35,303 nt of DNA from Vulcanimicrobiota bacterium (GTDB taxonomy: Bacteria; Vulcanimicrobiota; JAJTBE01): positions 1-35,303 of the forward strand of contig JAIORV010000182.1 of assembly GCA_021107945.1 (NCBI GenBank), written 5' to 3'. Positions within the stretch are counted from its first letter, which is position 1. Each line of letters opens with the position of its first letter. The notes under the pieces were generated by a model. It had not been told where the DNA came from, made no database searches, and was given only the letters and a program-made list of their open reading frames with translations. The translations under genes and the position numbers were made by a program. Shown here one piece after another: positions 1 to 31,110 of this stretch.

Positions 1-815
1 GTCACGACACCCAAAAAGCATATACCGGTAGCGGAAATGACAGGGTCTATCAGAAGGGTGGAAAAGGTAACGACACCCAGAAGGCATATACCGGCAGTGG
101 AAATGACAAGGTCTATCAGAATGGTGGAAAAGGTAACGATACCCAGGTAGCATACACTGGCAGAGGAGCCGACAAAGTTACCCAGAAGGGTGGAAAAGGT
201 AACGACACCCAGGTAGCAAGCACCGGTAGCGGTAATGACAAGGTTGTCCAGAAGGGCGGAAAAGGTAACGATACCCAGAAGGCATATACCGGCAGTGGAG
301 ATGACAAGGTTGTCCAGAGCGGTGGAAAGGGCAAAGACGTATTGGTTGCCAAAACCGGCAGTGGAGATGACAAGGTTGTCCAGAGCGGCGGAAAAGGCAA
401 AGACGTACTGGTTGCCAAAACCGGCAGTGGAGATGACAAGGTTGTCCAGAAGGGCGGAAAGGGCAAAGACGTATTGGTTGCCAAAACCGGCAGTGGAGCT
501 GACAAGGTTGTCCAGAGCGGCGGAAAAGGCAAAGACGTACTGGTTGCCAAAACCGGCAGTGGAGATGACAAGGTTGTCCAGAAGGGCGGAAAGGGCAAAG
601 ACGTATTGGTTGCCAAAACCGGCAGTGGAGCTGACAAGGTTGTCCAGAGCGGCGGAAAAGGCAAAGACGTACTGGTTGCCAAAACCGGCAGTGGAGATGA
701 CAAGGTTGTCCAGAGCGGTGGAAAGGGCAAAGACGTACTGGTTGCCAACACCGGCAGTGGAGCTGACAAGGTTGTCCAGAGCGGCGGAAAGGGCAATGAC
801 ACCATAAAAGTCAAC
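1..815 (+). repeat. 66-bp tandem repeats inside the RTX-like gene
   Basis: About twelve direct units of exactly 66 bp (for example CCGGCAGTGG begins at 91, and the same phase returns every 66 bases). Units before about 300 encode NDTQKAY-type sequence, later ones KDVLVAK-type. Between 421 and 684 the units alternate in pairs (Asp with Lys, Ala with Ser), giving a 132-bp higher-order repeat present twice. Confidence 0.9.
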
Positions 816-1091
816 GCCGGCGAGGGTGATGACGTTGTAAATATCGACGGCGGAAAAGGTAAAGACAAGATTACTTACGATGTCAGCGCCGGTAACGACA
901 AGGTCAGTATAAACGGTGGCAAAGGAAATGATTCTGCCACTATCAAGTCAAACGGCCAGAACTACACCGTAGTGGATGCAAAGGGCAATGAAATCTACTC
1001 ACAGGGTGAGGGAGGATCCAGCATCACTGTTAATGGCATCGAGCACCTTACAATTCTTGGAAATGATGGCAAGCCCGTATATCAAAACTAA
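1..1091 (+). CDS. RTX-like repeat protein, 3' part (5' end outside window)
   Basis: The frame is open from the first bases of the window to TAA at 1089-1091, so the start lies upstream. The visible 362 residues are mostly a 22-residue unit made of two 11-residue halves, one of the type TGSGDDKVVQS and one of the type GGKGKDVLVAK. Each half holds a core matching the RTX calcium-binding consensus (GGxGxDxUx), but spaced 11 rather than the usual 9 residues. After about residue 265 the units diverge (GGKGNDTIKV, GGKGKDKITY, GGKGNDSATI) and a non-repetitive tail containing VNGIEHLTIL closes the protein. RTX proteins are typically exported calcium-folded beta-rolls; export of this one is inferred. 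Synonymous variation is low between central units, so they are young copies. The function of the missing N-terminus is unknown. Confidence 0.8.
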   Translation, partial: HDTQKAYTGSGNDRVYQKGGKGNDTQKAYTGSGNDKVYQNGGKGNDTQVAYTGRGADKVTQKGGKGNDTQVASTGSGNDKVVQKGGKGNDTQKAYTGSGDDKVVQSGGKGKDVLVAKTGSGDDKVVQSGGKGKDVLVAKTGSGDDKVVQKGGKGKDVLVAKTGSGADKVVQSGGKGKDVLVAKTGSGDDKVVQKGGKGKDVLVAKTGSGADKVVQSGGKGKDVLVAKTGSGDDKVVQSGGKGKDVLVANTGSGADKVVQSGGKGNDTIKVNAGEGDDVVNIDGGKGKDKITYDVSAGNDKVSINGGKGNDSATIKSNGQNYTVVDAKGNEIYSQGEGGSSITVNGIEHLTILGNDGKPVYQN

Positions 1092-1354: not shown

Positions 1355-1684
1355 CTGAATACAACAAAGCGATGAAATGTGGAATTAAGGGGTTATTCTC
1401 ATGGGAGGTTAAAAATCTTCATTACCCTCCTCCGGTCTTCGTCAACATTCATTTTCTCTGTGTTCTCCGTGGCTCCGTGGTTTCGTGGGAAATGGGAAAA
1501 GGGAAATGGGAAATGGGAATCTTCCTTCGCCATCCACAATCCGTTATCTATTCTCTGCAATCCATGCCCTCTGCGAAATCTCTGCGCCCTCTGCGATCTC
1601 TGCGTTGAATAAACACTTCCGTCTCCGTTTATCGGGACGGGGACGTCCCTCCTACATTTCCGACCTCCGACCTCCATCATCCGT
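1355..1684. other. Gene-free gap made of low-complexity repeats and a REP-like element
   Basis: Holds a purine-rich run (GGGAAATGGGAAATGGGAA and relatives, 1486-1520), a CTCTGCG/CTCTGTG nonamer array (1457-1610), a REP-like palindrome at 1631-1656 and a CTCCGAC array (1657-1685). Short open frames crossing it are translations of these repeats. I see no gene, and no clear terminator for the leftward permease operon. Confidence 0.6.
1631..1656 (-). repeat. REP-like palindrome (GTAG foot)
   Basis: On the minus strand: TGTAGGA foot, stem GGGACG, loop TCCC, stem CGTCCC, then GAT. Identical to the element inside the deacetylase gene at 6757-6782, and near-identical to those at 26163-26188 and 30122-30147. 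Confidence 0.8.
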
Positions 1685-4298: not shown

Positions 4299-4416
4299 TT
4301 ATCGGGAAGCCGCTGAAGCGGCTGAAGGAATGGGAGACACGGGGAGTGGGATTGCTCCTATTCCCCCGGTTAAAACCGGGGGTTATTCTAATGGGAGGTT
4401 TGAAAACCTCCGCTAC
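4299..4416 (+). repeat. Composite three-hairpin repeat, copy 2
   Basis: Direct repeat of 1239-1354. All three hairpins are kept although their stems differ: GCCGCTGAAGCGGC here against GACGCTGAAGCGTC there is a compensated pair. The last hairpin reads on the minus strand as GTAGC followed by stem GGAGGTTT, loop TC, stem AAACCTCC, so it also carries a GTAG foot. Confidence 0.75.
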
Positions 4417-4424
4417 CGCATATC

Positions 4425-4770
4425 CCCGGTAGCGGAAACTTTCAGGTTTCCCGTCATATATGAGGAGGTTTAAAAAAACCAATACCATATATCCCGGTAG
4501 CGGAAATCTTCAGGTTTCCCGTCCTATATGAGCAGGTTTGAAAGCCCCCAATACCGCATATCTCGACACCGCATGTCCCGGTAGCGAATATCCCGGTAGC
4601 GAATATCCCGGTAGCGGAAACCTTCAGGTTTCCCGTCCTATATGAGCAGGTTTGAAAGCCCCCAATACCGCATATCTCGAACCGCATGTCCCGGTAGCGA
4701 ATATCCCGGTAGCGGAAACCTTCAGGTTTTACTCATCCGTCGGCAGGTTTAAAAACCTCCGATACAGGCA
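4425..4770. repeat. Tandem array of GTAG-foot hairpin units
   Basis: Four units start with CCCGGTAGCGGAAA at 4425, 4493, 4607 and 4705 (spacing 68, 114 and 98). Each carries a hairpin with stem GGAAACC, loop TTCA, stem GGTTTCC or a close variant. Units 4493 and 4607 share CCTATATGAGCAGGTTTGAA and CCCCCAATACCGCATATCTC. Shorter CCCGGTAGCGAATAT blocks lie between them. The array ends with a variant hairpin at about 4743-4761. Minus-strand open frames across it are repeat translations and not genes. Confidence 0.8.
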
Positions 4771-5163: not shown

Positions 5164-6996
5164 ATGTGTATTCACCTTGTAATAGACGGGGAAGAGATAG
5201 ACAAAAGCGCCTCATATAAAGACTATGGCAGACTGGATTTCTCACGGGTCTGGCAGAACACGCTTGATAAGGAGATGGGAAATTGTAAGGTTTTTGACAT
5301 ATCTCATATCAGATCACAGGAGCGGAATTCTTTGCCGGAAGAAAAAGATAACCCGGATTCAAAGCTAGATTATGCCGGGATTTTCAAGAAAGCGGCCGCT
5401 GTTATTTTCACCTCCTCGGTTAAAAATCCCCCCGACGATTTAATCAGCGAAGCTTGTAGGTTCATAAAGGACGGAAACCTTATCGTTATCGAGATGCCCT
5501 CGCCCCGTTGGAATGGACTCATGGAAAGAGAGGTTGTCCCCCGGGATGTTGAGACATCAAATATTTCACTTGATTCCGGCATAAACAGGATCTCCCCGCG
5601 GATTCTGCCTCTTTCGACTTCCGATCATCTAACGCATATGCCACTTACCACAAGGATTATGGATATCGACAGTGTCCCGGACGATATGGAAGTTCTATTC
5701 AGAATCGCTAAAAAGCCTGCATTTGTTCAGTATGAACTGGATGCTGGATGGATTATATTCCTGTTTTTCGATTTTGGCATGCAAATGACATCGATCTGCC
5801 AGGGTACTCCTTCAAAACGGGATTATTCCGTAAAAAAGCATTTAAGCCATATTCCCCTGATAAAAGAGAGTGAGGATCTGGCAATTCATGAGAATATGCT
5901 GAAAAAACTCCATCCTTACGCTGATATACTGGCAAAATTTTTTTTCGCCGCCCTGGAGGATCTTATATCGTTTCCCCGGTTATGGTATTACCCCTATAAA
6001 CACGACGGCGTTTTCATGATGACCCATGATGACGAAAAACGGGGGCAATCTATATCCATGTATATGGTGGAAGAGGAATTCTCCAGAAAATTTACATCAA
6101 CATTTTTCGTTATATGCAGTCCCGGAGTTGAGAAAAGATGGGAAAACGCAGACAAAGATGTGATTGACAAGGGATTTGATATTCAATGGCACTGGAACCG
6201 ATTTCCCGATAATCTTCAAATATATAGTCCTGAGGAGCAGATTGAGAATTTCAACAAGATACCGGGAGTAAATCTTACATCCTGCAGAATTCACTTCCTC
6301 AACTGGGGAAATCATTATACAAAACCCTTCCGGGTGATGGAGAAACAGGGAGTTTCATTTGACAGCACATACGGTCCCAACAAAGGCAGGGGTTACTTAT
6401 TCGGCACAGGCATGCCGTTTCATCCGATTGACACGGACGGGAGTTTGTTTTCACTGTATGAGGTCCCGTTTCAGACACAGGAAGACTGGGCAGGCGTTGA
6501 CATCAAATATTTCGAGAAGCTTTTCAAAAACAGCCTGGATTTGTATCACAGTATAATCATCTCGATATTCCATCCCCACAAAGTGGCAAAAGGAAAAGGA
6601 CGAGACCTCTGGCTTGGCTCATTTGAGTTGGCGAAGAAATACAACCACTGGATAACAACATTCTCCGAATTCGGTGATTTTTACAAGAAAAGATGCAAGG
6701 TAGAGATGAAGAGGTCGGAGGACGGAGAACGGAGAACGGATGCCGGAGGACGAATATGTAGGAGGGACGTCCCCGTCCCGATAAACGAAGAACGGAAGTC
6801 GGAAATAAAACCAGGGGATCCACCTTTTCGAATAATAACCGATGCGGGCAGGAAGTATATGTTAATTCCCGCAAGCAAGTTCAGGAGCTTCGACATACCC
6901 TTCTTAAAGAACTTGAATTTTTCGAATATTCCCGAAGAGATGGAGGATGTTATAGCGGTAAGAATACCATTCAAATTTTCACCACAAATGGGGTGA
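5164..6996 (+). CDS. NodB-like polysaccharide deacetylase family protein with N-terminal extra domain and in-frame repeat insertion
   Basis: 610 residues, no signal peptide. Residues 1 to about 230 resemble the flavodoxin/GATase-like domain often fused ahead of this fold (not certain). The catalytic-like part begins near 280 with KHDGVFMMTHDDE, matching deacetylase motif 1 (usually TFDDG). It continues with a WHWNR metal-site motif near 345, a FDSTYGPNKGRGYLFGTGMPF segment and SIFHPHK near 468. These enzymes remove acyl groups from polysaccharides using a divalent metal. Residues about 516-550 are repeat-derived: they translate a purine array plus a REP-like palindrome (6757-6782), giving ICRRDVPVPIN. 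Homologous-looking sequence resumes with FRIITDAGRKYMLIPASKF. The ATG start has a weak SD (CGGAG, about 15 bases upstream), so the start is tentative. Confidence 0.68.
   Translation: MCIHLVIDGEEIDKSASYKDYGRLDFSRVWQNTLDKEMGNCKVFDISHIRSQERNSLPEEKDNPDSKLDYAGIFKKAAAVIFTSSVKNPPDDLISEACRFIKDGNLIVIEMPSPRWNGLMEREVVPRDVETSNISLDSGINRISPRILPLSTSDHLTHMPLTTRIMDIDSVPDDMEVLFRIAKKPAFVQYELDAGWIIFLFFDFGMQMTSICQGTPSKRDYSVKKHLSHIPLIKESEDLAIHENMLKKLHPYADILAKFFFAALEDLISFPRLWYYPYKHDGVFMMTHDDEKRGQSISMYMVEEEFSRKFTSTFFVICSPGVEKRWENADKDVIDKGFDIQWHWNRFPDNLQIYSPEEQIENFNKIPGVNLTSCRIHFLNWGNHYTKPFRVMEKQGVSFDSTYGPNKGRGYLFGTGMPFHPIDTDGSLFSLYEVPFQTQEDWAGVDIKYFEKLFKNSLDLYHSIIISIFHPHKVAKGKGRDLWLGSFELAKKYNHWITTFSEFGDFYKKRCKVEMKRSEDGERRTDAGGRICRRDVPVPINEERKSEIKPGDPPFRIITDAGRKYMLIPASKFRSFDIPFLKNLNFSNIPEEMEDVIAVRIPFKFSPQMG
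6704..6806 (-). repeat. REP-like element and flanking purine array inside a coding region
   Basis: The palindrome at 6757-6782 is identical to 1631-1656 in reverse orientation: GTAG foot, stem GGGACG, loop TCCC, stem CGTCCC. Its flanks (GAACGGATG, GGAGGACG on one side and ATAAACG, GAACGGAAGTCGGA on the other) are the same filler seen in gaps near 1600-1690. The length is compatible with the reading frame and introduces no stop. Confidence 0.85.
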
Positions 6997-7833: not shown

Positions 7834-7860
7834 GGTCTCAGATTAAATGTTCTTCCTCTA

Positions 7861-7938
7861 TGTAGGAGTGGCATCCTGCCACGAGAATGAGGGCAGACTC
7901 CCACGAAAAACGAATCGAGGCTGGAAGCTTCTCCTACA
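7861..7938. repeat. Inverted pair of REP-like palindromes (REPIN-like)
   Basis: The left element is on the plus strand: TGTAGGA foot, stem GTGGCA, loop TCC, stem TGCCAC, then GAGAA. The right element is on the minus strand: TGTAGGA foot, an imperfect GAGAAGCT / AGCCTC stem around TCC, then GAT. The pair sits just behind the ankyrin gene. Stem bases differ from the 1631 element, but foot and loop are conserved. Confidence 0.7.
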
Positions 7939-11863: not shown

Positions 11864-12679
11864 GTGAAAAACAGTAAAAATTTCAAGGTAATGGCAACCG
11901 TTGTTGCACTACTCTTCCTGGCGACATCATTTATAGTAATGATGGGCTGCGGCGGCGGCGGTGGCGGCGGTGGCGGCGGCAGTTCCTCAAACCTGGGAAC
12001 TGTTACCGGTACAGTTTATGATTCCAGTTCTAACACAGTAACAGGAGCTCTTGTAAGCTGGAAACTGTCGGGGGTAGCTTCTGCAAAGGAAACCTCGACG
12101 ACAACCGACAACTATGGTAACTTCAAACTGCAAGATGTAACTCCGGGCAATGTCCTTATTACCGCCAACTATAATGACGAGGCATACCATGTCGATATAC
12201 TGGTAACGGCAGATGGGACAAGCCAGGTACTGGCAAATCTGACACCTTCAGGAATAGTACAGGGAACGATCTCCGATTATTTGACAAGTTCAGTGTTGTA
12301 TGGCGCCGTTGTGTCAATTACAACCATTGATAATGTAACATTGCTGGATTCCTCAGACACCAGCGGTTTTTACCAGATTACCGATGTTTATACAGGTACT
12401 CATACCGTTTATACTACATTGAGCGGTTATTATACCTCATCAGCTTCCGTGACTGTTTCAATGGGTAATACAACATCACAGAACTTCTCGCTCACACCCA
12501 CAACCCAACCGACACCGACACCTACTCCGACGGTATCACCCACACCGGGAACCGGAAAAGTATATGCTGTTTTTGTAGGTATTAGCGATTATCGGATTAC
12601 TGTGTGGCTGACGCAGAAGGTATGCAAGCAAACTTTGAGAGTTCCACTCTCTGGAGCGGCTCAAGCATCACACTTCTGA
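11864..12679 (+). pseudogene. Caspase-like lipoprotein, N-terminal fragment (frameshifted)
   Basis: GTG start with AGGAGGGAG 6 bases upstream. The signal peptide ends in VMMGC, a plausible lipobox with Cys29, followed by ten glycines. Two carboxypeptidase-regulatory-like beta-sandwich domains follow (GTVTGTVYDSSSNTVTGALV near 45, and VQGTISDYLTSSVLYGAVVS near 127). A Pro/Thr linker leads to the start of a peptidase C14 domain (VYAVFVGISDY, about 233-243). The frame then runs into unrelated sequence and stops at 12679. The C14 domain continues in another frame from about 12586. The fused product would be an outer-membrane or surface-anchored caspase-like protease of about 490 residues. The break may be real decay or an assembly error between the similar strings GCGATTAT and CGGATTAC. 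Confidence 0.8.
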
Positions 12680-13344
12680 CCAACAGTGACGCAACAGAGA
12701 CCGCTATTGGAAACGCAATAACATACGTCAAGAACAATGCAACTTCCGATGACCTTTTCGTATTCACCTTCAGCGGACATGGAACAAACAGTGTTGGTAA
12801 CGCCGCCCTGGTGACATGGGACGACAGCGGAGGATTTGCATACCTCGATGACTCCGACCTTGAGACCTTGATCTCCGGCATGCCCTGCCCTACGGCGATT
12901 TATCTGGATTCCTGCTATAGTGGTGGAATGATAGGCAAGAAGCTTCAGAAAAAAATCAACGGCGACGTTCTCACCGGGAAAGTCTATACAAATGCACCCG
13001 GATATGATCCCAACTTCAAGGGCGGCTTCCTGCTGGGTAAAAAGAGCGTTGAAGCACTTAATAACCTGGTTGCCATATCAGCTTCCAGCGGCACCGAATT
13101 ATCCTGGGAAAGTAGTTCTCTCCAACACGGAGTCTTTACATATTATGTGATGCAAGGACTCGGAACCGGAAGTACATTAGGTCCGGCCGAAGTAGATTCA
13201 AGTGGAAATATTTCTGCCGAAGAAACGCATTGCTATGCAGAAGACCTGGTGCAGACATATTCCGGTTATGATCAAAACCCACAGATGACTGACAATTATC
13301 CCACAATACTGAGTAACACAACAGATTTGGTTGTTAAACAGTAG
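12586..13344 (+). pseudogene. Caspase-like peptidase (C14) catalytic domain, C-terminal fragment of the lipoprotein gene
   Basis: Continues the preceding fragment in a different frame, open from just after TAG at 12583 to TAG at 13342. It reads LSDYCVADAEGMQ, then the catalytic His motif FTFSGHGTNS (His codon 12778-12780) and the catalytic Cys motif IYLDSCYSGG (Cys codon 12913-12915). This is the His-Cys dyad of caspase/metacaspase peptidases. The join with the upstream part (GISDY ... LSDYCVADAEGM) lacks roughly 4-8 residues expected between strand 1 and the first helix. That fits a small deletion whose length is not a multiple of three. An internal GTG at 12604 could start translation but has no good SD. 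If the deletion is an assembly error, the gene is intact. Confidence 0.82.
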
Positions 13345-21905: not shown

Positions 21906-21990
21906 CCTTTTTCCCACTTCCATACACCACGGAGGCACAAAGAACACATAGGACACGGAGTTTTTATGATTTTCGAAAAATAGGGGAAAA

Positions 21991-22538
21991 ATGGGGACAG
22001 CGCCCTATTTATCTGAAATATTTTCAGAGATCACAGGAGCGCTAAATGGCGTCATTACTTGATTAAAGCACATGTTGAAAATTATAAAACTAGGGACAGC
22101 CCCCTATTTATCAAAATATCCTTTATATATAAACATTCTAAAAGACCTGATAATAAAGTTATAAAAAGGGGGACAGCCCCCTATTATTTTCGAGAGATGT
22201 GAAGCGGGAAACGGGAGGTTGGAAGCAGGAGGTTGTATAAAACTAGGGACAGCGCCCTATTTATTAAAATATCCTTTATGTATAAACTTTCTAAAAGACC
22301 TGATAATAAAGGGATTCTGCAGTTTAAAAATGGGGACAGCGCCCTATTTTTCTGAAATATTTTCAGAGATCACAGGAGCGCTAAATGGCGTCATTACTTG
22401 ATTAAAGCACATGTTGAAAATTATAAAACTAGGGACAGCCCCCTATTTATTAAAATATCCTTTATATATAAACTTTCTAAAAGACCTGATAATAAAGGGA
22501 TTCTGCAGTTATAAAAAGGGGGACAGCCCCCTATTATT
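21991..22538. repeat. Array of two repeat blocks with GGGACAG hairpins
   Basis: A 100-base block X is present at 21991-22090 and 22330-22429. A block Y of about 90-110 bases is present at 22091-22190, 22244-22329 and 22430-22538. Blocks begin and end with small hairpins of type AGGG-ACAGCG-CCCT or GGGGG-ACAG-CCCCC followed by ATT. X also holds CTGAAA-TAT-TTTCAG. No open frame is credible. A GCGGGAAACGGGAGG purine stretch (22204-22218) interrupts the array. Confidence 0.85.
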
Positions 22539-22726: not shown

Positions 22727-22882
22727 GTAGCTCAAACCTTTAGGTTTGCCAATTTGTTTGCCACCCGATAATCCAAACAATAACGTATGTTTGATGATTT
22801 GTCACAATGTTGAGCGGTACGTTTTGAATGGTGTTTTGCTACATTTATCGGGATTATTGGCGGGTTTAAAAACCCGCGCTAC
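22727..22882. repeat. Inverted pair of GTAG-foot hairpins (REPIN-like)
   Basis: Left, plus strand: GTAGCT, stem CAAACC, loop TTTA, stem GGTTTG (22727-22748). Right, minus strand: GTAGC, stem GCGGGTTT, loop TT, stem AAACCCGC (22882-22860). The interval holds nothing recognisable. Confidence 0.65.
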
Positions 22883-24274: not shown

Positions 24275-24367
24275 TGGCGGGAGTGAAAAGGAGTCGAACC
24301 TTCCAGGGGTGTTAAGTCCCTCAACGGTGTTGAAGACCGCGGGAGCCACCGGGCCCCATCCACTCCC
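24275..24367 (-). tRNA. selC: tRNA-Sec (anticodon UCA)
   Basis: Folds as a bacterial selenocysteine tRNA of 93 bases. The 8-bp acceptor stem is GGGAGTGG with TCACTCCC, followed by G73 and an encoded CCA. A 6-bp D stem (GGGGCC with GGCTCC) closes a short loop. The anticodon arm is GCGGT-CTTCAAC-ACCGT with TCA central. A long variable arm (AGGG/CCCT) precedes a T arm with loop TTCGACT. The 8-bp acceptor, 6-bp D stem and long extra arm are the features that set tRNA-Sec apart from other UCA-like or serine tRNAs. It decodes in-frame UGA with SelA, SelB and SelD, none of which is encoded here. Confidence 0.95.
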
Positions 24368-24466: not shown

Positions 24467-26110
24467 TCACACCACTATTCCCTCTTTTTTTAGAGCCGGC
24501 CAGAGTTTTTTCAGGGTCATGGAGTCGAGAAACTTCCTGGGGGCTGATTTGCCCTTCTCGCTAACAACGGCATTGAGAGTAAGTGCGACATAAGCCGGCG
24601 TAAAGCCCCGGGATACTATATCCTTCCCCACATCGAGAATAACTTTTTCATCCACTTTTGGATGCCCGTTTTGATAGTGATATATTGCGGTTTGAAGGTA
24701 ATTGTCCGTGAATATTATTTTATCCCTGTAGTGTGCTTTTCCGGTCTCAAGGGATTCAAGCCTGTCGGCAAACGTTATAAAGTCTTTCAGTTTTAGACCG
24801 TGCTTATTACTCAAATGTGGCTCATCGGGCTTTCCTGATCCCGCGTTTATGCAGATAATCTCCAGTCCGTCTCCCTTTGGCACTTCATCAACCGCCTGAA
24901 GAATCTGTTTTTTATCCGTATCGTGGACTCTTGCAAGCTCGGGCCAGGTCGTTTTGTCGGAGAACATCTTTTCAAGTCTTTCAGTACTCAGATCCCCTGA
25001 TGAAATACCATGAAACAGCAGGTAAAAAATCGGATCATATTCGGTTATATCACCCTGAGCAATTGTTTTAACACCCGGTGGCAAGTGAGATGATATTCCC
25101 ACCTGTTTTTTCAGCTTGAATCCCACCTGCTCGGAAATTCGTTTTATACGTTTCCTGAAGCCCTCTCCTATCCTCTTCTTTGTCCAGTTTTTGAATTCCA
25201 GAGCGCGGGGTTCTATGCCCTCGCTTTCCATTGCAGAAAGTATATTGGTGCTGAGATTGGTAGTACTCCCCGATACTGTATGAACATCTTCGGACAAAGC
25301 CCTGTAAAGTGGAATTGCGCCCGGCAAAAACTTACGCTTCCAGGGCTCCTGGTAGAAGTATCCCGGTCCTATCGTCGTATCCATTATGGTCTTATCGATA
25401 TCGCTTGAGATCACGGTTTCGCCGGGTTTTACAAGGTGGATATTTCCCGCCCCGACCGGATGAGTGCTTTCCTCATGTTTATTGAAATATGCCTGCCTGC
25501 TGTTCTCATCCTCGACACTCCGGAAAAATACATCGTATCTTAAATCCTGCCCTTTAACTTTCTTTTTCTCCTTGTCGGTAAGCTTCACATCGAGGTTGAA
25601 GTTACCCTCATTATTAGCTATTCCATTGCGAGTGGTAATTACTTCCCCGGATTTATTTTTTACCTTCATCTGAAAGTTTACGCCGCCCTTGACCTCGTCG
25701 GTCTCCAGATCAAGCATGTTTCCGACTATTCCGAGACCTATCTTCCGGAAAAATTTACAGAGCCAATGGTTTAGCGAGGAGAATGTAAGAAACCGCCCTT
25801 TCACCGCAAACCCTTTTTTAAGACTGCCTATGGTATTGAAGCTTCTGCAGGCCAACTGTCTCCTGCATTTTATCAGATTTTTCTTCGCCTGAATCCCCAC
25901 AACGTCCGGCGCTTCATCTGTGTTATAAAATTGCTTGTATGTATTCCATTTTTGCTTTATGCCTTTTGGATCCAGACGGGGAAGCTTCATTGCCGACATA
26001 CCCTTTTTAAACGCATCCCTTATGGGGTGTTGTGAAGGAGATTCAGTTTCGGCTCCATGTTTAAAATATATTTCCCTGTTTATCCCTGTTTCCGTTTTCT
26101 TTATGTTCAT
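24467..26110 (-). CDS. APP1/DUF2183-like HAD-fold phosphatase
   Basis: 547 residues, no signal peptide. The N-terminal 130 residues are basic and unrecognised. Residues about 140-225 look like a beta-sandwich of the kind that precedes the catalytic part in this family (VNFQMKVKNKSGEVITTRNGIANN ... DLRYDVFFRS). The HAD motif TVISSDIDKTIMDTT (Asp-x-Asp-x-Thr, about 232-246) marks the catalytic domain, with a second motif around VSGSTTNLSTNI. IIFTDNYLQTAIYHYQ near 500 corresponds to the conserved C-terminal DNxxQ region of DUF2183. Yeast App1 is a phosphatidate phosphatase; the bacterial substrate is not known. AGGGGAAG precedes ATG. It follows the large repeat protein gene in the same direction, 118 bases downstream. 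Confidence 0.78.
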   Translation of the reverse strand: MNIKKTETGINREIYFKHGAETESPSQHPIRDAFKKGMSAMKLPRLDPKGIKQKWNTYKQFYNTDEAPDVVGIQAKKNLIKCRRQLACRSFNTIGSLKKGFAVKGRFLTFSSLNHWLCKFFRKIGLGIVGNMLDLETDEVKGGVNFQMKVKNKSGEVITTRNGIANNEGNFNLDVKLTDKEKKKVKGQDLRYDVFFRSVEDENSRQAYFNKHEESTHPVGAGNIHLVKPGETVISSDIDKTIMDTTIGPGYFYQEPWKRKFLPGAIPLYRALSEDVHTVSGSTTNLSTNILSAMESEGIEPRALEFKNWTKKRIGEGFRKRIKRISEQVGFKLKKQVGISSHLPPGVKTIAQGDITEYDPIFYLLFHGISSGDLSTERLEKMFSDKTTWPELARVHDTDKKQILQAVDEVPKGDGLEIICINAGSGKPDEPHLSNKHGLKLKDFITFADRLESLETGKAHYRDKIIFTDNYLQTAIYHYQNGHPKVDEKVILDVGKDIVSRGFTPAYVALTLNAVVSEKGKSAPRKFLDSMTLKKLWPALKKEGIVV

Positions 26111-26162
26111 TATTTTCTTCCCCTAAAATTATGTTCACTACAAAGACACGAAGTTATCCATT

Positions 26163-26188
26163 ATCGGGACGAGGACGTCCCTCCTACA
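26163..26188 (-). repeat. REP-like palindrome (GTAG foot)
   Basis: Minus strand: TGTAGGA foot, stem GGGACG, loop TCCT, stem CGTCCC, then GAT; one base different from 1631-1656. Followed on the plus strand by a CTCCGAC array (26196-26228) that reaches the stop codon of the neighbouring gene. Confidence 0.8.
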
Positions 26189-26228: not shown

Positions 26229-28550
26229 TCACTCCATTCTCGGTTCCGGCGGAATCCATCCGTCGGGCCTCCCGGGGCGGGATTCCATTACATTCAGGAG
26301 TTTCAAATATTTCGAGAAATTCTTCTGAATCTCCTCGCCGCAAGGTTTCGCAATTTCACCCATCTCAGACAGTTTTGCTTGTAATTCATCCTTCTGTGAT
26401 GCAAATTTATCCTCATCCAGGCTTTCGATGAGCGATCTTAAGCTTGGGAACAATTGCTCTATACTCTCACCGCTTGAAAGTCTGAGTTCACCTGCTTCCA
26501 GTCTTTTTTTTGCACTCTCAAGGTCGGACTCGGCATTGGACAATTGTGATTTTGCCCTCCTTATTCTCCTCTCTGCGTCTGATATGTCACTCTCTGCCTG
26601 GCGTATCTCTTCCACTTTCTCCTCGTTTTCAACCTGATGTTGCCCGAAATGATACTCGTATTTACCCGTGCTGTAATTATAACCGTAATCATATCCGTAT
26701 TCCCATACCTCGTCGTCCATTGACTCAGCATAGAGGAGATCACGCTCGGCATCTCTGAGGTCTCTCTTCCCCCTTGTTATATCCGATTCAGCCTTGTCGA
26801 TATTACCCTTGGAATCGTTTATATCATTTTTGGATTTGTCGATATTTGATTTCGCCTCCTGGACATCTTTCTTGAGAATATCAGGAGTCTTTTTCATTTC
26901 TTTCGCCGTCTTGTCCTCATATTCGGGGAAGCTGAAGCTGTACTTGTCATATTCCTGCTGGTTTGCAAGTTTTGTAAGGGCATCGGGGAGATCATTGATA
27001 TTGCCCGCTTTCCCGGACATCAATTCGTCAAAGTCTCCTCCCTCCATCCTGTAATGAACAGGGGTCCCGTCCTGAAATTTCTGGAGTGCGCCATAAGATG
27101 ATATTGCCAGACTGGTTGGGGATCCGCTTTCACACAGGTATGGCTTTATCGCCTGTAGGTTGTCATATTGATCCTTTGGGAGTATGTCATTGACCCCTTT
27201 TCCCTCAAGGGCGTCAAGCTCGTGAATGTCTTCCGGCGTCCTTGCCCTTTCTATAAATCCGAGATATTTTATATAAGCAATGCTTCCCCCCTGCATCTCC
27301 TGGAGCGACTGATACGCATTAATCTTCCTGCCCCCCGGAGTTCTATACGCGCCCAGTTGGTCGAAACTTTTCATCGAATCGAACTGGTTCTCCGGTAGAA
27401 TGGTATTTTTTCCGCTTCCATAGAAAGCATCAAGTTCCGCCATATCCTGCGTTGTTCTCACAACCATGCCTTCTACATAGCCAATATTTATGGAGACACT
27501 CTCTCCGGACTGTAGTGCCTGTAGTGCTTCATACGCATTCGCCTTTTTCCCTTCGATAAGGAAGCCATCGTCGGGATCCTTCCCTTTTTCGAAATACTTG
27601 AAAAGCTGGAAATCCTTGTCGGGCATTATTGTATTTTCCCCCTGCCCGTAAAAGGCGTTTGCCTCGGCAAGGTCACCGGTATCCTTTGCGATGAGGTTAC
27701 TTTTTGACCCGACGTTTATCCCCACATTTTCTCCCTCCTGGAGTCTTTGCAGGGCGTCATAAGCGTTGACGCTCTCGCCGTCGACGTAAAGTCCATCTTT
27801 CTCTTTTTCTCCATGTTCAAGGTTTTTCAAAGCCTGGAATTGATCCTGCGGTAGAATTGTGTTCTCTCCCTCTCCATAAAGAGCGTTCGCCTCAGTGAGA
27901 TCCGCGGGACTGAAAGCTTTCAAGTCCGATTGCTCACCGATATTAACCTGTATCTCCTCGCCGGTTCTCAGGGCATTGTATGCATCAAATGAGTTTACTT
28001 TCTTTTCGCCCCAGAATCCAGGGTTGTAAAATCCGTCGTTCTCGTCAACGCCTTTTTCCAGGAACTTGAGGGCGTCAAACTGATTATCGGGCAGGATGGT
28101 GTTTTTGCCTCTGCCTTTTAGAGAATCAAGAACCTGCAATGTATCAAGATTGTCAACCCGTGAATGTCCATTCCTCTCGTTCTCTATATAGACGGGCTTG
28201 CCTTTCTTCAGTCTTTCCAGTACCTTGCCGGAATCTTTTATTTTATGGTGAAAGAAGAGGATTTTCTTGAAAAATCCTGCTTCTGTGCCGTTCTCCATTC
28301 CGTTTTTTGAAAAATATTCAATAGCTTCTTTCGCCTCTGAATCCGGGAAATACTTCATTGCGGATTTCATTTCCTGCGCCGTCTTGCTCAATTTCTGGGT
28401 TTCCACACTTTCAGGCATAGTTTCTTCGCTTTTTGAGCATAAGGCTACGGGATCGCTTTTTGTTTTTACAGACTTTTCATCTTTTATCCTTTTCCCGGTA
28501 TTGATCCCACCACCTATATTAATCCTGGCTCCTGAATCTCTTATTTCCAT
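26229..28550 (-). CDS. Large cytoplasmic repeat/coiled-coil protein of unknown family
   Basis: 773 residues from ATG at 28548-28550; GGAGG 8 bases before it makes the in-frame ATG 11 codons upstream unlikely. There is no signal peptide. A disordered N-terminus (1-55) is followed by a 72-80 residue tandem repeat. Its marker NTILPxxQFxALKxLExG starts at about 150, 230, 306, 382 and (degenerate) 454, each unit continuing with DGFY, NAYDALQxLQxGE, xxINIG and ExxAFYGxG. From 556 to 612 and 640 to 690 lie strict heptads of the type DIxKSKN/DLxDAER, split by a Tyr-rich hinge (WEYGYDYGYNYSTGKYEYHF). I recognise no known domain. A structural or scaffolding role is a guess. It precedes the phosphatase gene in the same orientation. 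Confidence 0.82.
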   Translation of the reverse strand: MEIRDSGARINIGGGINTGKRIKDEKSVKTKSDPVALCSKSEETMPESVETQKLSKTAQEMKSAMKYFPDSEAKEAIEYFSKNGMENGTEAGFFKKILFFHHKIKDSGKVLERLKKGKPVYIENERNGHSRVDNLDTLQVLDSLKGRGKNTILPDNQFDALKFLEKGVDENDGFYNPGFWGEKKVNSFDAYNALRTGEEIQVNIGEQSDLKAFSPADLTEANALYGEGENTILPQDQFQALKNLEHGEKEKDGLYVDGESVNAYDALQRLQEGENVGINVGSKSNLIAKDTGDLAEANAFYGQGENTIMPDKDFQLFKYFEKGKDPDDGFLIEGKKANAYEALQALQSGESVSINIGYVEGMVVRTTQDMAELDAFYGSGKNTILPENQFDSMKSFDQLGAYRTPGGRKINAYQSLQEMQGGSIAYIKYLGFIERARTPEDIHELDALEGKGVNDILPKDQYDNLQAIKPYLCESGSPTSLAISSYGALQKFQDGTPVHYRMEGGDFDELMSGKAGNINDLPDALTKLANQQEYDKYSFSFPEYEDKTAKEMKKTPDILKKDVQEAKSNIDKSKNDINDSKGNIDKAESDITRGKRDLRDAERDLLYAESMDDEVWEYGYDYGYNYSTGKYEYHFGQHQVENEEKVEEIRQAESDISDAERRIRRAKSQLSNAESDLESAKKRLEAGELRLSSGESIEQLFPSLRSLIESLDEDKFASQKDELQAKLSEMGEIAKPCGEEIQKNFSKYLKLLNVMESRPGRPDGWIPPEPRME

Positions 28551-28797
28551 AATATAACCTCCATAATTAGATAAATTGAGCATTTATAGATATGACTCTC
28601 CAATGTCTATTCTATATCAAATCATCAGTAATATCAACAGGTTTATGTTAATAATTGGTTAAACTTAAGATACAAAATTGACAAAAGCAAGATGAAGTAT
28701 GAAGTTGACAACATCCCGGAAAGGCTATAAAATTAGATCGGATATTAAGAAGATTCACATTAGCGGAATGATGCGGAATTATGAAAAGAGGCAAAAA

Positions 28798-30057
28798 GTG
28801 GACATCAAGAGAACGGGACAAACATCCTCCCAAAAACCTGTCAGGGGAAATATAAATAAAAAATCTGAAGCCAAATCTTTCCGGGATATTACAGATACAT
28901 ACAAACCCGGTGAAAAGTCGGCGAAAATTGACCCCGGGTTGAAGGCCGCTGCGGAGATCCTCCTGAAAACAAAAGAGCAGAGAGAGGTAAGGCAGGAATG
29001 GTCGGTTGATTGCTACGGCATCGCCTATGTCGCTGATGAGTCAAAGGTGGTAATTGGCGGTCATAATGCCCAGGTAAGAGCTCTTGATACATTGAACGGG
29101 AAAGATAAGTGGAAGTCGGAGAGAAAGGGATTCGTATCCCAGGGCAAGGATGGATCTCTTCTTGTATCTTCAAATGATAATACCATATATGCTCTCGATC
29201 CCGGTAACGGCAAAGATAGGTGGAAAAAGAAACTTGAGGGTGGAGCGAATATAGCCGGCATTGGCGACGACGGCACAATATACGCTGATATCGGCAAAGA
29301 GATCCATGCGATTGACCCCGATACAAGAGAAACAAAATGGAAGTGTAAGAAGATCGGTTACCCGGTAGTCAGTTCTGATGAGATGATATATTCGGGGAGT
29401 CCTGATAATCATGTATATGCATTTGACCCTGGCACAGGGGAGGAAAAATGGAACTTCAAGACAGATGGGCTTGTCAGATGCGCTCCCACCGTAGGAAAAA
29501 ACGGCACCGTCTTTGCAGGAGATACAAATGGCAAATTATACGCCATTGATCCGGATACGGGAGAGGAAAAATGGAACTTTAAGACGGGTAATTTCATCCT
29601 GGTCACACCCACCATAGCCGAGGATGGAACGGTCTATGTGGGGAGTTGCGATCATCACCTGTATGCCCTTGATCCCGAGACCGGCGAGAAGAAATGGTCA
29701 TTTGACGCCGGCGCTGAGATAAGAACAAGACCGAAGATTGCCCCGGACGATACGATATTACTTGTTAGCGACAGAAATTTCATATATTCCGTCAATCAGA
29801 AAAACGGCAGGAAGATATGGCAGAAAAAAGCTGACAGTTATGTCCATGTAACACCTATATTTGGGGACGAGGGAAAAATATATTTCGGATGCAATAATCA
29901 CAAAGCCTACGCGCTGAGGGATCCAATGATGAAAAAACGGGATGTTAAACAAATCCTGGATGAGCAGGAAAATTCTCCCAAAGAAAGAGCGAAGATCGTC
30001 ATGGGAGATGGATATGTGGAAATCGGTGGAGTAACTCTGCCCAAGAGGAAAAAATAA
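28798..30057 (+). CDS. PQQ-like beta-propeller protein (cytoplasmic, BamB-like blades)
   Basis: 419 residues from GTG at 28798, chosen because AAGAGG lies 6 bases upstream. The frame stays open to an ATG at 28699 that has no SD. A polar N-terminus (about 1-75) precedes eight PQQ-type blades of about 40 residues with the signature YALDPxTGEEKWxFKTG (for example VYAFDPGTGEEKWNFKTDG, LYAIDPDTGEEKWNFKTG, LYALDPETGEKKWSFDAG) and TPTIxEDGTVYVGS between blades. The C-terminus has MGDGYVEIGGVTLPKRKK. Such propellers bind partners and here lack quinone-enzyme features. No signal peptide is seen, unlike BamB. It is divergent from the large repeat protein gene across a 247-base AT-rich gap. Confidence 0.85.
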   Translation: MDIKRTGQTSSQKPVRGNINKKSEAKSFRDITDTYKPGEKSAKIDPGLKAAAEILLKTKEQREVRQEWSVDCYGIAYVADESKVVIGGHNAQVRALDTLNGKDKWKSERKGFVSQGKDGSLLVSSNDNTIYALDPGNGKDRWKKKLEGGANIAGIGDDGTIYADIGKEIHAIDPDTRETKWKCKKIGYPVVSSDEMIYSGSPDNHVYAFDPGTGEEKWNFKTDGLVRCAPTVGKNGTVFAGDTNGKLYAIDPDTGEEKWNFKTGNFILVTPTIAEDGTVYVGSCDHHLYALDPETGEKKWSFDAGAEIRTRPKIAPDDTILLVSDRNFIYSVNQKNGRKIWQKKADSYVHVTPIFGDEGKIYFGCNNHKAYALRDPMMKKRDVKQILDEQENSPKERAKIVMGDGYVEIGGVTLPKRKK

Positions 30058-30121
30058 GAAATCAGATGTGAGAATATCGAACAAATGTTTTCTCACCGCA
30101 GAGTTCGCGGAGTAACCCATT

Positions 30122-30147
30122 ATCGGGACGAGGACGTCCCTCCTACA
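30122..30147 (-). repeat. REP-like palindrome between convergent genes
   Basis: Same sequence as 26163-26188, with a CTCCGCCATCCG tail (30163-30174). It lies between the converging stops of the propeller gene and the RelE-like partner gene, a position where a hairpin could serve as a two-way terminator. Confidence 0.8.
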
Positions 30148-30174: not shown

Positions 30175-31110
30175 CTATTTCAATCCCTTGTCATGTTCAC
30201 CGGGACCGTAATAATCGATAAACACGAGCGTATTCCCCACTAATTTGTAATGGATCCTCTGCTCCCCTGATACTCTCATTCTTCTCTCGCCTTCTCTTCC
30301 TCTGATAGGCTCGTCGTTCAGTCCGCGATCTACGCTTGCATCAGCTCTGGAAAGGTTTACCCTCTTGGCGATTCCTTTTATAATAAGCTCTCGAAACCTG
30401 GGCTCTGCGTTTACAAGGTCTTCCACAAACTTATCATCAAAATCGAAATCCTGTTTCTGTCTTCTCTGGAGATCAGCGAATTTCTGCTCCGATGCGATTT
30501 CAACTGCAAGACGGAGTCTTTCCACTTCTTTCCTATCCGTATCCCGGGGCCAGAAGTCAATATAATTGACAACATGAGCCCAATCGGACGGATGCCTTAT
30601 GATCTCTGAATCTATTTTTTTTTGATCGCAGTCGCATAAAAGCCTGACACTTTTTGTATCTGTATCCCGGAATTCAATACCCGATGCGATATAGGGCGTT
30701 TCCCCCAGATCCATCATTATATGAAGAAGTACATGCCAGCTTTTCAGGATTTCCTTTCTCTGGAATCCGGAGAAAATGTCCGGGTTTATCTTGCATGCGT
30801 CAAGCTCGTCTGAATTGTCAACGAGAAACATGCATTTCTGGAATATCCTGTAAATAACAGGGACAAGCTGGTTATTCCATCCCTTTTTCATTCTCCAGGG
30901 AGGCGGATTGGGATCTGTCCAGAGAAACTCCTCCAATTCATCAGACCAGGCGAAGAGCATGTCGAAGCTCTCGATTTTCTGCATATGGCCCAGGAACTGC
31001 TCAAGGAAATCGTCCCTGTATTCCTCGTCGTTCCACTTCTCAGCCGATGCGAAGACAAGATCCGGCGACAGACTCGGCAACATATCAACGCTGTTATCTT
31101 CCCTTGGCAT
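30175..31110 (-). CDS. ATPase-associated protein with RelE-like C-terminal domain
   Basis: 311 residues. The first 200 residues are unrecognised, acidic and Trp-rich (WSDELEEFLWTDPNPPPWRMKK; FWPRDTDRKEVERLRL). Residues about 228-311 follow the RelE/ParE toxin pattern. A helix pair (FVEDLVNAEPRFRELIIKGI) is followed by EPIRGREGERRMRVSGEQRIHYKL, VGNTLVFIDYYGP and a His near the end. In RelE-type proteins the Arg/Lys-rich strand sits at the mRNA-cleaving or gyrase-binding face; whether it is active here is unknown. The start overlaps the upstream ATPase stop by 17 bases, so the two are one operon and probably one functional unit. No antitoxin-like small gene is present. Confidence 0.72.
   Translation of the reverse strand: MPREDNSVDMLPSLSPDLVFASAEKWNDEEYRDDFLEQFLGHMQKIESFDMLFAWSDELEEFLWTDPNPPPWRMKKGWNNQLVPVIYRIFQKCMFLVDNSDELDACKINPDIFSGFQRKEILKSWHVLLHIMMDLGETPYIASGIEFRDTDTKSVRLLCDCDQKKIDSEIIRHPSDWAHVVNYIDFWPRDTDRKEVERLRLAVEIASEQKFADLQRRQKQDFDFDDKFVEDLVNAEPRFRELIIKGIAKRVNLSRADASVDRGLNDEPIRGREGERRMRVSGEQRIHYKLVGNTLVFIDYYGPGEHDKGLK

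What the first reader, a model, noticed from the sequence alone, without database searches (positions are those of the whole stretch)
6704..6806. REP-like element and its purine array inserted in frame inside a coding gene
Residues about 516-550 of the deacetylase-like protein are a translation of the same filler found between genes, including the exact 26-bp palindrome of 1631-1656. The insert keeps the frame and has no stop; homologous-looking sequence continues after it. This resembles the Rickettsia palindromic elements that enter genes and become part of the protein, which is rare outside that group.
Basis: partly seen in the sequence, partly recalled or inferred. Interest (0 to 1): 0.66.

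Follow-up and report, generated by a model that had tools for sequence, protein, structure and literature searches.

The report
Transposase-linked repeat translated inside genes
A short hairpin DNA repeat, present about 320 times in this uncultured bacterium and linked to its own transposase type, has landed in frame inside several protein genes and appears to be translated as extra loops; the copy in this window lies at the end of a deacetylase-like gene, where the site is less clear-cut than in the sister genes.

Summary
ORF 5164-6996 (+) reads in frame through 28 bp (6757-6784) that are the exact reverse complement of 1629-1656, plus flanking purine heptad arrays. The core TGTAGGAGGGACGTCCCCGTCCCGATAA occurs about 320 times in this 5.56-Mb genome and in none of 148 other genomes of the phylum. 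It has the features of a GTAG-tagged REP: GTAG head, imperfect hairpin, and two REP-associated tyrosine transposase (RAYT) loci flanked by inverted copies. In other genes of this genome, copies are clean in-frame insertions against orthologues or solved relatives: about 31 aa in a GNAT acetyltransferase (a disordered beta-hairpin loop in the model), 47 aa in a radical SAM enzyme, 44 aa in a B12-radical-SAM enzyme. So RPE-like behaviour is supported genome-wide. In the window gene it is only partly supported: the PelA-like domain ends just before the element, and the 60 residues after it match neither the orthologues' C-terminal domain nor anything else, so a clean insertion cannot be told from a replaced 3' end. 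It is not a Rickettsia RPE (those are CGTC-tagged). Intragenic GTAG REPs are already published: new member of a known kind.

The parts
5164..6996 (+). Host ORF, 610 aa: PelA/CE4-like deacetylase that reads in frame through the element. No Pfam or NCBIfam family; orthologues at about 30-35% identity in the same phylum.
   Evidence: fold match to PelA 9cgy (E 2.8e-08) and CE4 deacetylases
5164..6708 (+). Conserved part shared with orthologues (residues 1-515), with invariant HDxE, HWN, RxHFxxWG and HPH motifs
6711..6756 (+). Purine heptad array (CGGANNN)n on the GTAG side, phase-locked to the core as in most other copies
6757..6784 (+). REP core TGTAGGAGGGACGTCCCCGTCCCGATAA: GTAG head, 6-bp stem with 4-nt loop, GATAA tail; translated as CRRDVPVPIN
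6785..6803 (+). Short downstream heptad array (ACGAAGAACGGAAGTCGGA)
6814..6993 (+). Tail of 60 codons after the element: no relative found, intermediate codon score, low model confidence; origin unresolved
1629..1656 (-). Second core copy (GTAG-sense on the minus strand), between genes, identical to 6757-6784
26161..26188 (-). Third core copy, with arrays, between ORFs 24467-26110 and 26229-28583
30120..30147 (-). Fourth core copy, between ORFs 28699-30057 and 30175-31110

Best explanation
The segment is one of about 320 copies of a GTAG-tagged REP element (a 28-bp core, usually embedded in phase-locked purine or pyrimidine heptad arrays) that spread within this lineage, most likely by a REP-associated tyrosine transposase (RAYT) acting on the single-stranded hairpin. 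Most copies lie between genes. Copies that landed inside genes survive where the whole insert keeps the frame and falls in a solvent-exposed loop or at a protein end; they are then translated as short hydrophilic, disordered peptides (usually ...CRRDVPVPIN...). In the window gene the copy lies right after the conserved deacetylase domain and forms part of an altered C-terminal tail. Shown: sequence identity, copy number, in-frame openness, RAYT loci flanked by inverted copies, clean in-frame gaps against orthologues or solved relatives in other genes, disordered loop in one model. Inferred: mobilisation by RAYT, translation, tolerance by selection, and that the window gene is functional.
For: 323 copies versus 0 control; 0 in 148 phylum genomes. 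Sharp 28-nt conserved core with heptads in fixed phase; ssDNA hairpin -6.7 kcal/mol, z -2.5. Two of 12 Y1 transposase genes (L171 at C1:39227, intact; L169 at C1:58656, with an internal stop) are flanked within about 600 nt by 4 and 3 core copies in inverted orientation; L171 scores 133 bits for NF047646 REP-associated tyrosine transposase (cut-off 80). Clean in-frame insertions: GNAT C10:64669, about 31 aa absent from five relatives, pLDDT about 50 or less for the insert between two strands of an otherwise confident GNAT model; radical SAM C9:18939, about 47 aa absent from five relatives; B12-radical SAM C10:62873, query 101-180 and 225-314 align to adjacent CysS residues 62-141 and 142-231. 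Further in-frame candidates: C3:20888 CHAP-like, C1:37715 kinase linker, C7:60454 U32 peptidase, C112:4344 PMT loop.
Against: For the window gene itself no clean gap exists: orthologues have a C-terminal domain of 60-80 residues there and the window's tail does not match it. The tail's codon score is intermediate (8% of gene windows score as low; 17% of open intergenic windows score as high), so it may be read-through of non-coding DNA. No expression data. No close relative of this genome is available to date the insertions.
Confidence: 0.78

Rival explanations
1. In the window gene the element did not simply insert into an intact reading frame. The gene lost or had replaced its C-terminal domain (through insertion, deletion or recombination between repeats), and translation now runs through the element into about 60 unrelated codons: a truncated, possibly still active enzyme with a chimeric tail. 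(This concerns the window gene only and is compatible with the genome-wide explanation.)
For: Orthologues' C-terminal domain is not detectable after the element in any of six frames; the tail has no relatives; its codon score is intermediate; the gene also lacks the N-terminal membrane segment that complete orthologues have.
Against: The conserved part ends within a few residues of the array start with intact motifs; the frame stays open for 60 more codons; the tail length is close to that of the orthologous domain; orthologues are only 30-35% identical, and a fast-evolving terminal domain could be unrecognisable.
Confidence: 0.45
2. The gene is a decaying pseudogene and the open frame across the element is chance.
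For: Neighbouring features show decay (split caspase-like gene 11864-13344); both ends of the protein differ from orthologues.
Against: 515 codons without stop or frameshift, catalytic-type motifs kept, gene-like codon score along the conserved part.
Confidence: 0.12
3. The element is a true Rickettsia-type palindromic element (RPE family).
For: Same behaviour: palindromic repeat, in frame, within unrelated genes.
Against: R. conorii RPEs are reported to end in CGTC (PMC3733652) and to be about 100-150 bp (PMC2229807, PMC10969869); this core is 28 bp, GTAG-tagged and RAYT-linked.
Confidence: 0.02
4. Assembly chimerism at repeats created the in-gene copies.
For: Draft assembly of 215 contigs with about 320 repeat copies.
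Against: In the GNAT, radical SAM and B12-radical SAM genes the same orthologous protein continues correctly on both sides of the insert, which a chimeric join would not give.
Confidence: 0.03

Closest known systems
GTAG-tagged REP elements and REPtrons (RAYT + REP); REPINs
   Same: GTAG head, short imperfect hairpin, hundreds of copies, mostly intergenic, RAYT genes flanked by inverted copies; intragenic copies known in several species, most in Opitutus terrae (O. terrae in PMC3733652).
   Different: Core embedded in phase-locked heptad arrays; in-gene inserts are composite (core plus arrays, 31-47 aa); restricted to this one genome of its phylum as far as sampled.
Rickettsia palindromic elements (RPE) and Wolbachia protein-coding palindromes
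   Same: Palindromic repeats found in frame in unrelated protein genes, tolerated as extra segments.
   Different: RPEs are longer and reported CGTC-tagged; CGTC repeats are reported to lack a dedicated transposase (PMC3733652). Here a RAYT is present and the tag is GTAG.
Exopolysaccharide deacetylase PelA / CE4 polysaccharide deacetylases (host gene)
   Same: Predicted fold of the window protein matches PelA 9cgy and CE4 enzymes.
   Different: No Pfam or NCBIfam match; moderate-confidence model (mean pLDDT 67).

Membership tests
GTAG-tagged REP (RAYT-associated) | Short palindrome/hairpin of 20-40 bp | tested here: met
   28-nt conserved core, 6-bp stem
GTAG-tagged REP (RAYT-associated) | GTAG tetranucleotide at one end | tested here: met
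   T-GTAG invariant or nearly so in 138 copies (the copies were collected by core similarity, so this is partly by construction)
GTAG-tagged REP (RAYT-associated) | High copy number, dispersed | tested here: met
   323 and 322 copies
GTAG-tagged REP (RAYT-associated) | RAYT gene flanked by copies in inverted orientation | tested here: met
   L169, L171; NF047646 133 bits for L171
GTAG-tagged REP (RAYT-associated) | Bound and cleaved by its RAYT | not testable with these tools
   needs purified protein
Rickettsia palindromic element | In-frame location in unrelated protein genes | tested here: met
Rickettsia palindromic element | CGTC tag at the end | tested here: not met
   GTAG tag instead; feature taken from PMC3733652
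Rickettsia palindromic element | Unit of about 100-150 bp with terminal inverted repeats | tested here: not met
   conservation drops sharply outside 28 nt; size from PMC2229807 and PMC10969869
Protein-coding insertion in the window gene | Clean gap in orthologues at the site, homology on both sides | tested here: inconclusive
   homology only on the 5' side

The most novel reading that the evidence does not exclude
A RAYT-driven REP family whose GTAG-sense reading frame works as a translatable, tolerated linker peptide (CRRDVPVPIN with charged arrays), so that a transposase-linked repeat regularly adds disordered loops to proteins in a lineage unrelated to Rickettsia. The surveyed internal in-gene copies are almost all in the GTAG sense, and nearly all in that one frame, although the antisense strand is open in all three frames.
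Probability: 0.2. Interest if true: 0.72.

Novelty: new member of a known kind. Interest (0 to 1): 0.5.

Why it matters
Palindromic repeats inside proteins are best known from Rickettsia, where no dedicated transposase is known for them. Here the repeats, the probable transposase and several clean in-frame insertions are in one genome of the phylum that contains the UBP9/Xenobia lineage, so the question of how such repeats enter and persist in proteins becomes testable with a defined enzyme-substrate pair and defined loop inserts. It also gives a yardstick: roughly 320 copies, of which about ten are plausible in-frame gene copies.

Tried and rejected
Profile search for the orthologues' C-terminal domain in the tail and in all six frames downstream: nothing. 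Joining the flanks of the window gene to show the empty site: score no better than with shuffled tails. Search for relatives of the tail in own genome and phylum: none. A first small codon model suggested that the tail was gene-like; a larger one made it ambiguous, so that argument was dropped. CHAP-like insert C3:20888: no orthologue in the phylum and no solved relative, so not counted as proven. C7:28568: its upstream glycosyltransferase part appears frameshifted, so not counted. C4:49092 and C26:28716 lie upstream of plausible starts and are probably not translated. U32 candidate C7:60454: no PDB match to place the gap. RPE membership rejected on tag and size.

Full report
Observation. ORF 5164-6996 (+, 610 aa) runs without a stop through 6757-6784, which is the exact reverse complement of 1629-1656 and is surrounded by the same purine heptads seen between genes. 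The repeat is not chance: 323 copies at up to 3 mismatches in the 5.56-Mb genome, 0 for the reversed control, and none in the 148 other genomes of the phylum searched.

What the repeat is. Aligning 138 copies shows a sharp 28-nt conserved core, TGTAGGAGGGACGTCCCCGTCCCGATAA, with heptads (CGGANNN) in fixed phase on both sides that fade with distance. The core folds as ssDNA into a 6-bp stem with a 4-nt loop. Twelve Y1 transposase genes are present. Two of them, C1:39227-39565 (intact) and C1:58656-58985 (with an internal stop), are flanked within about 600 nt by 4 and 3 core copies, in one orientation on the left and the other on the right. The intact one scores 133 bits for the NCBIfam model of REP-associated tyrosine transposases, cut-off 80. 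This is the published architecture of a REPtron with GTAG REPs (PMC3733652).

In-frame copies elsewhere in the genome. A pattern-based survey of 155 copies and a translated scan of the genome found about ten long open frames that hold a copy with coding sequence on both sides or at a protein end. Three have a clean gap in relatives: a GNAT acetyltransferase (about 31 aa between two beta strands), a radical SAM protein (about 47 aa) and a B12-binding radical SAM protein (44 aa between residues that align to adjacent positions 141 and 142 of solved CysS). The GNAT model is confident (mean pLDDT 85) except for the insert, which averages about 50 and lies between strands 51-60 and 91-100; Foldseek confirms the GNAT fold. 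In these three genes the same orthologous protein continues on both sides, which argues against assembly chimeras.

The window gene. Its relatives occur sparsely in the phylum (11 of 149 genomes give any match), and nine relatives were found in genome contigs, some titled UBP9. The predicted fold matches PelA and CE4 deacetylases, which supports 'deacetylase-like', although no Pfam or NCBIfam model matches and the model is only moderate (mean pLDDT 67). Homology to orthologues extends to about residue 515 and stops where the purine array begins. Complete orthologues then have a C-terminal beta domain of some 60-80 residues. The window has the element (about 31 codons) and then 60 residues that match neither that domain nor anything in the genome or phylum. 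Codon usage of the tail is intermediate. The gene also lacks the N-terminal membrane segment of its orthologues. So a clean insertion and a replaced 3' end both fit; this copy is the least informative of the set.

Mechanism. Best-supported reading: RAYT-mediated spread of the hairpin core, most copies kept between genes, and a minority surviving in genes where length and frame allow and the peptide falls in a loop or terminus. Mobilisation and translation are inferred, not shown. The surveyed internal in-gene copies are almost all in the GTAG sense and nearly all in the frame CRRDVPVPIN, while the antisense core is open in all three frames; the antisense arrays would encode more hydrophobic S/P/F/L-rich peptides, so selection for hydrophilic loops is a plausible cause (inference). 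The numbers are small, and part of the set came from a search biased to that frame.

Known or new. Intragenic GTAG REPs, including many in Opitutus terrae, are already described, and the same paper notes that R. conorii RPEs end in CGTC (PMC3733652). In-frame RPE insertion is long known (PMC2229807, PMC10969869). This is therefore a new member of a known kind, in a lineage where my limited literature search found no such report, with unusually clear in-frame gaps and a candidate transposase. The assignment of the phylum to Vulcanimicrobiota/Eremiobacterota rests on UBP9 record titles among its members and on my own knowledge.

Noticed in passing
window 11864-13344 (+): A caspase-like (Peptidase_C14) gene with carboxypeptidase-regulatory domains is split into two overlapping ORFs, as by a frameshift.
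   Followed up: partly
window 4393-4765, 22859-22882, 7860-7890: Other GTAG-containing palindromes (GGTAGCGGAGGTTTTCAAACCTCC-like; GTAGGAGTGGCATCCTGCCACG) suggest several REP families, in line with 12 Y1 transposase genes in the genome.
   Followed up: no
window 24-917: Ten copies of a 66-bp repeat that is open on both strands and encodes a glycine/aspartate-rich repeat protein.
   Followed up: no
window 24279-24367 (-): Selenocysteine tRNA gene.
   Followed up: no
window 21987-22521: Direct repeats of 172 nt and 100 nt built around a GGGACAGCCCCCTAT palindrome between genes.
   Followed up: no
L207 2069-3709 (G000:C112): A mannosyltransferase-like membrane protein carries two adjacent core translations (CRRDVPVPD-CRRDVPVPIK) in a stretch between hydrophobic segments.
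   Followed up: partly
L095 1679-2887 (G000:C9): The radical SAM insert begins and ends with a REP core; a GCATGTGG motif occurs at both borders, possibly a trace of the insertion event.
   Followed up: no
L099 53-2308 (G000:C10): The B12-radical SAM protein seems to hold a second array-derived stretch (..ASHFPLPISS..) without a core, so arrays alone may also enter genes.
   Followed up: no
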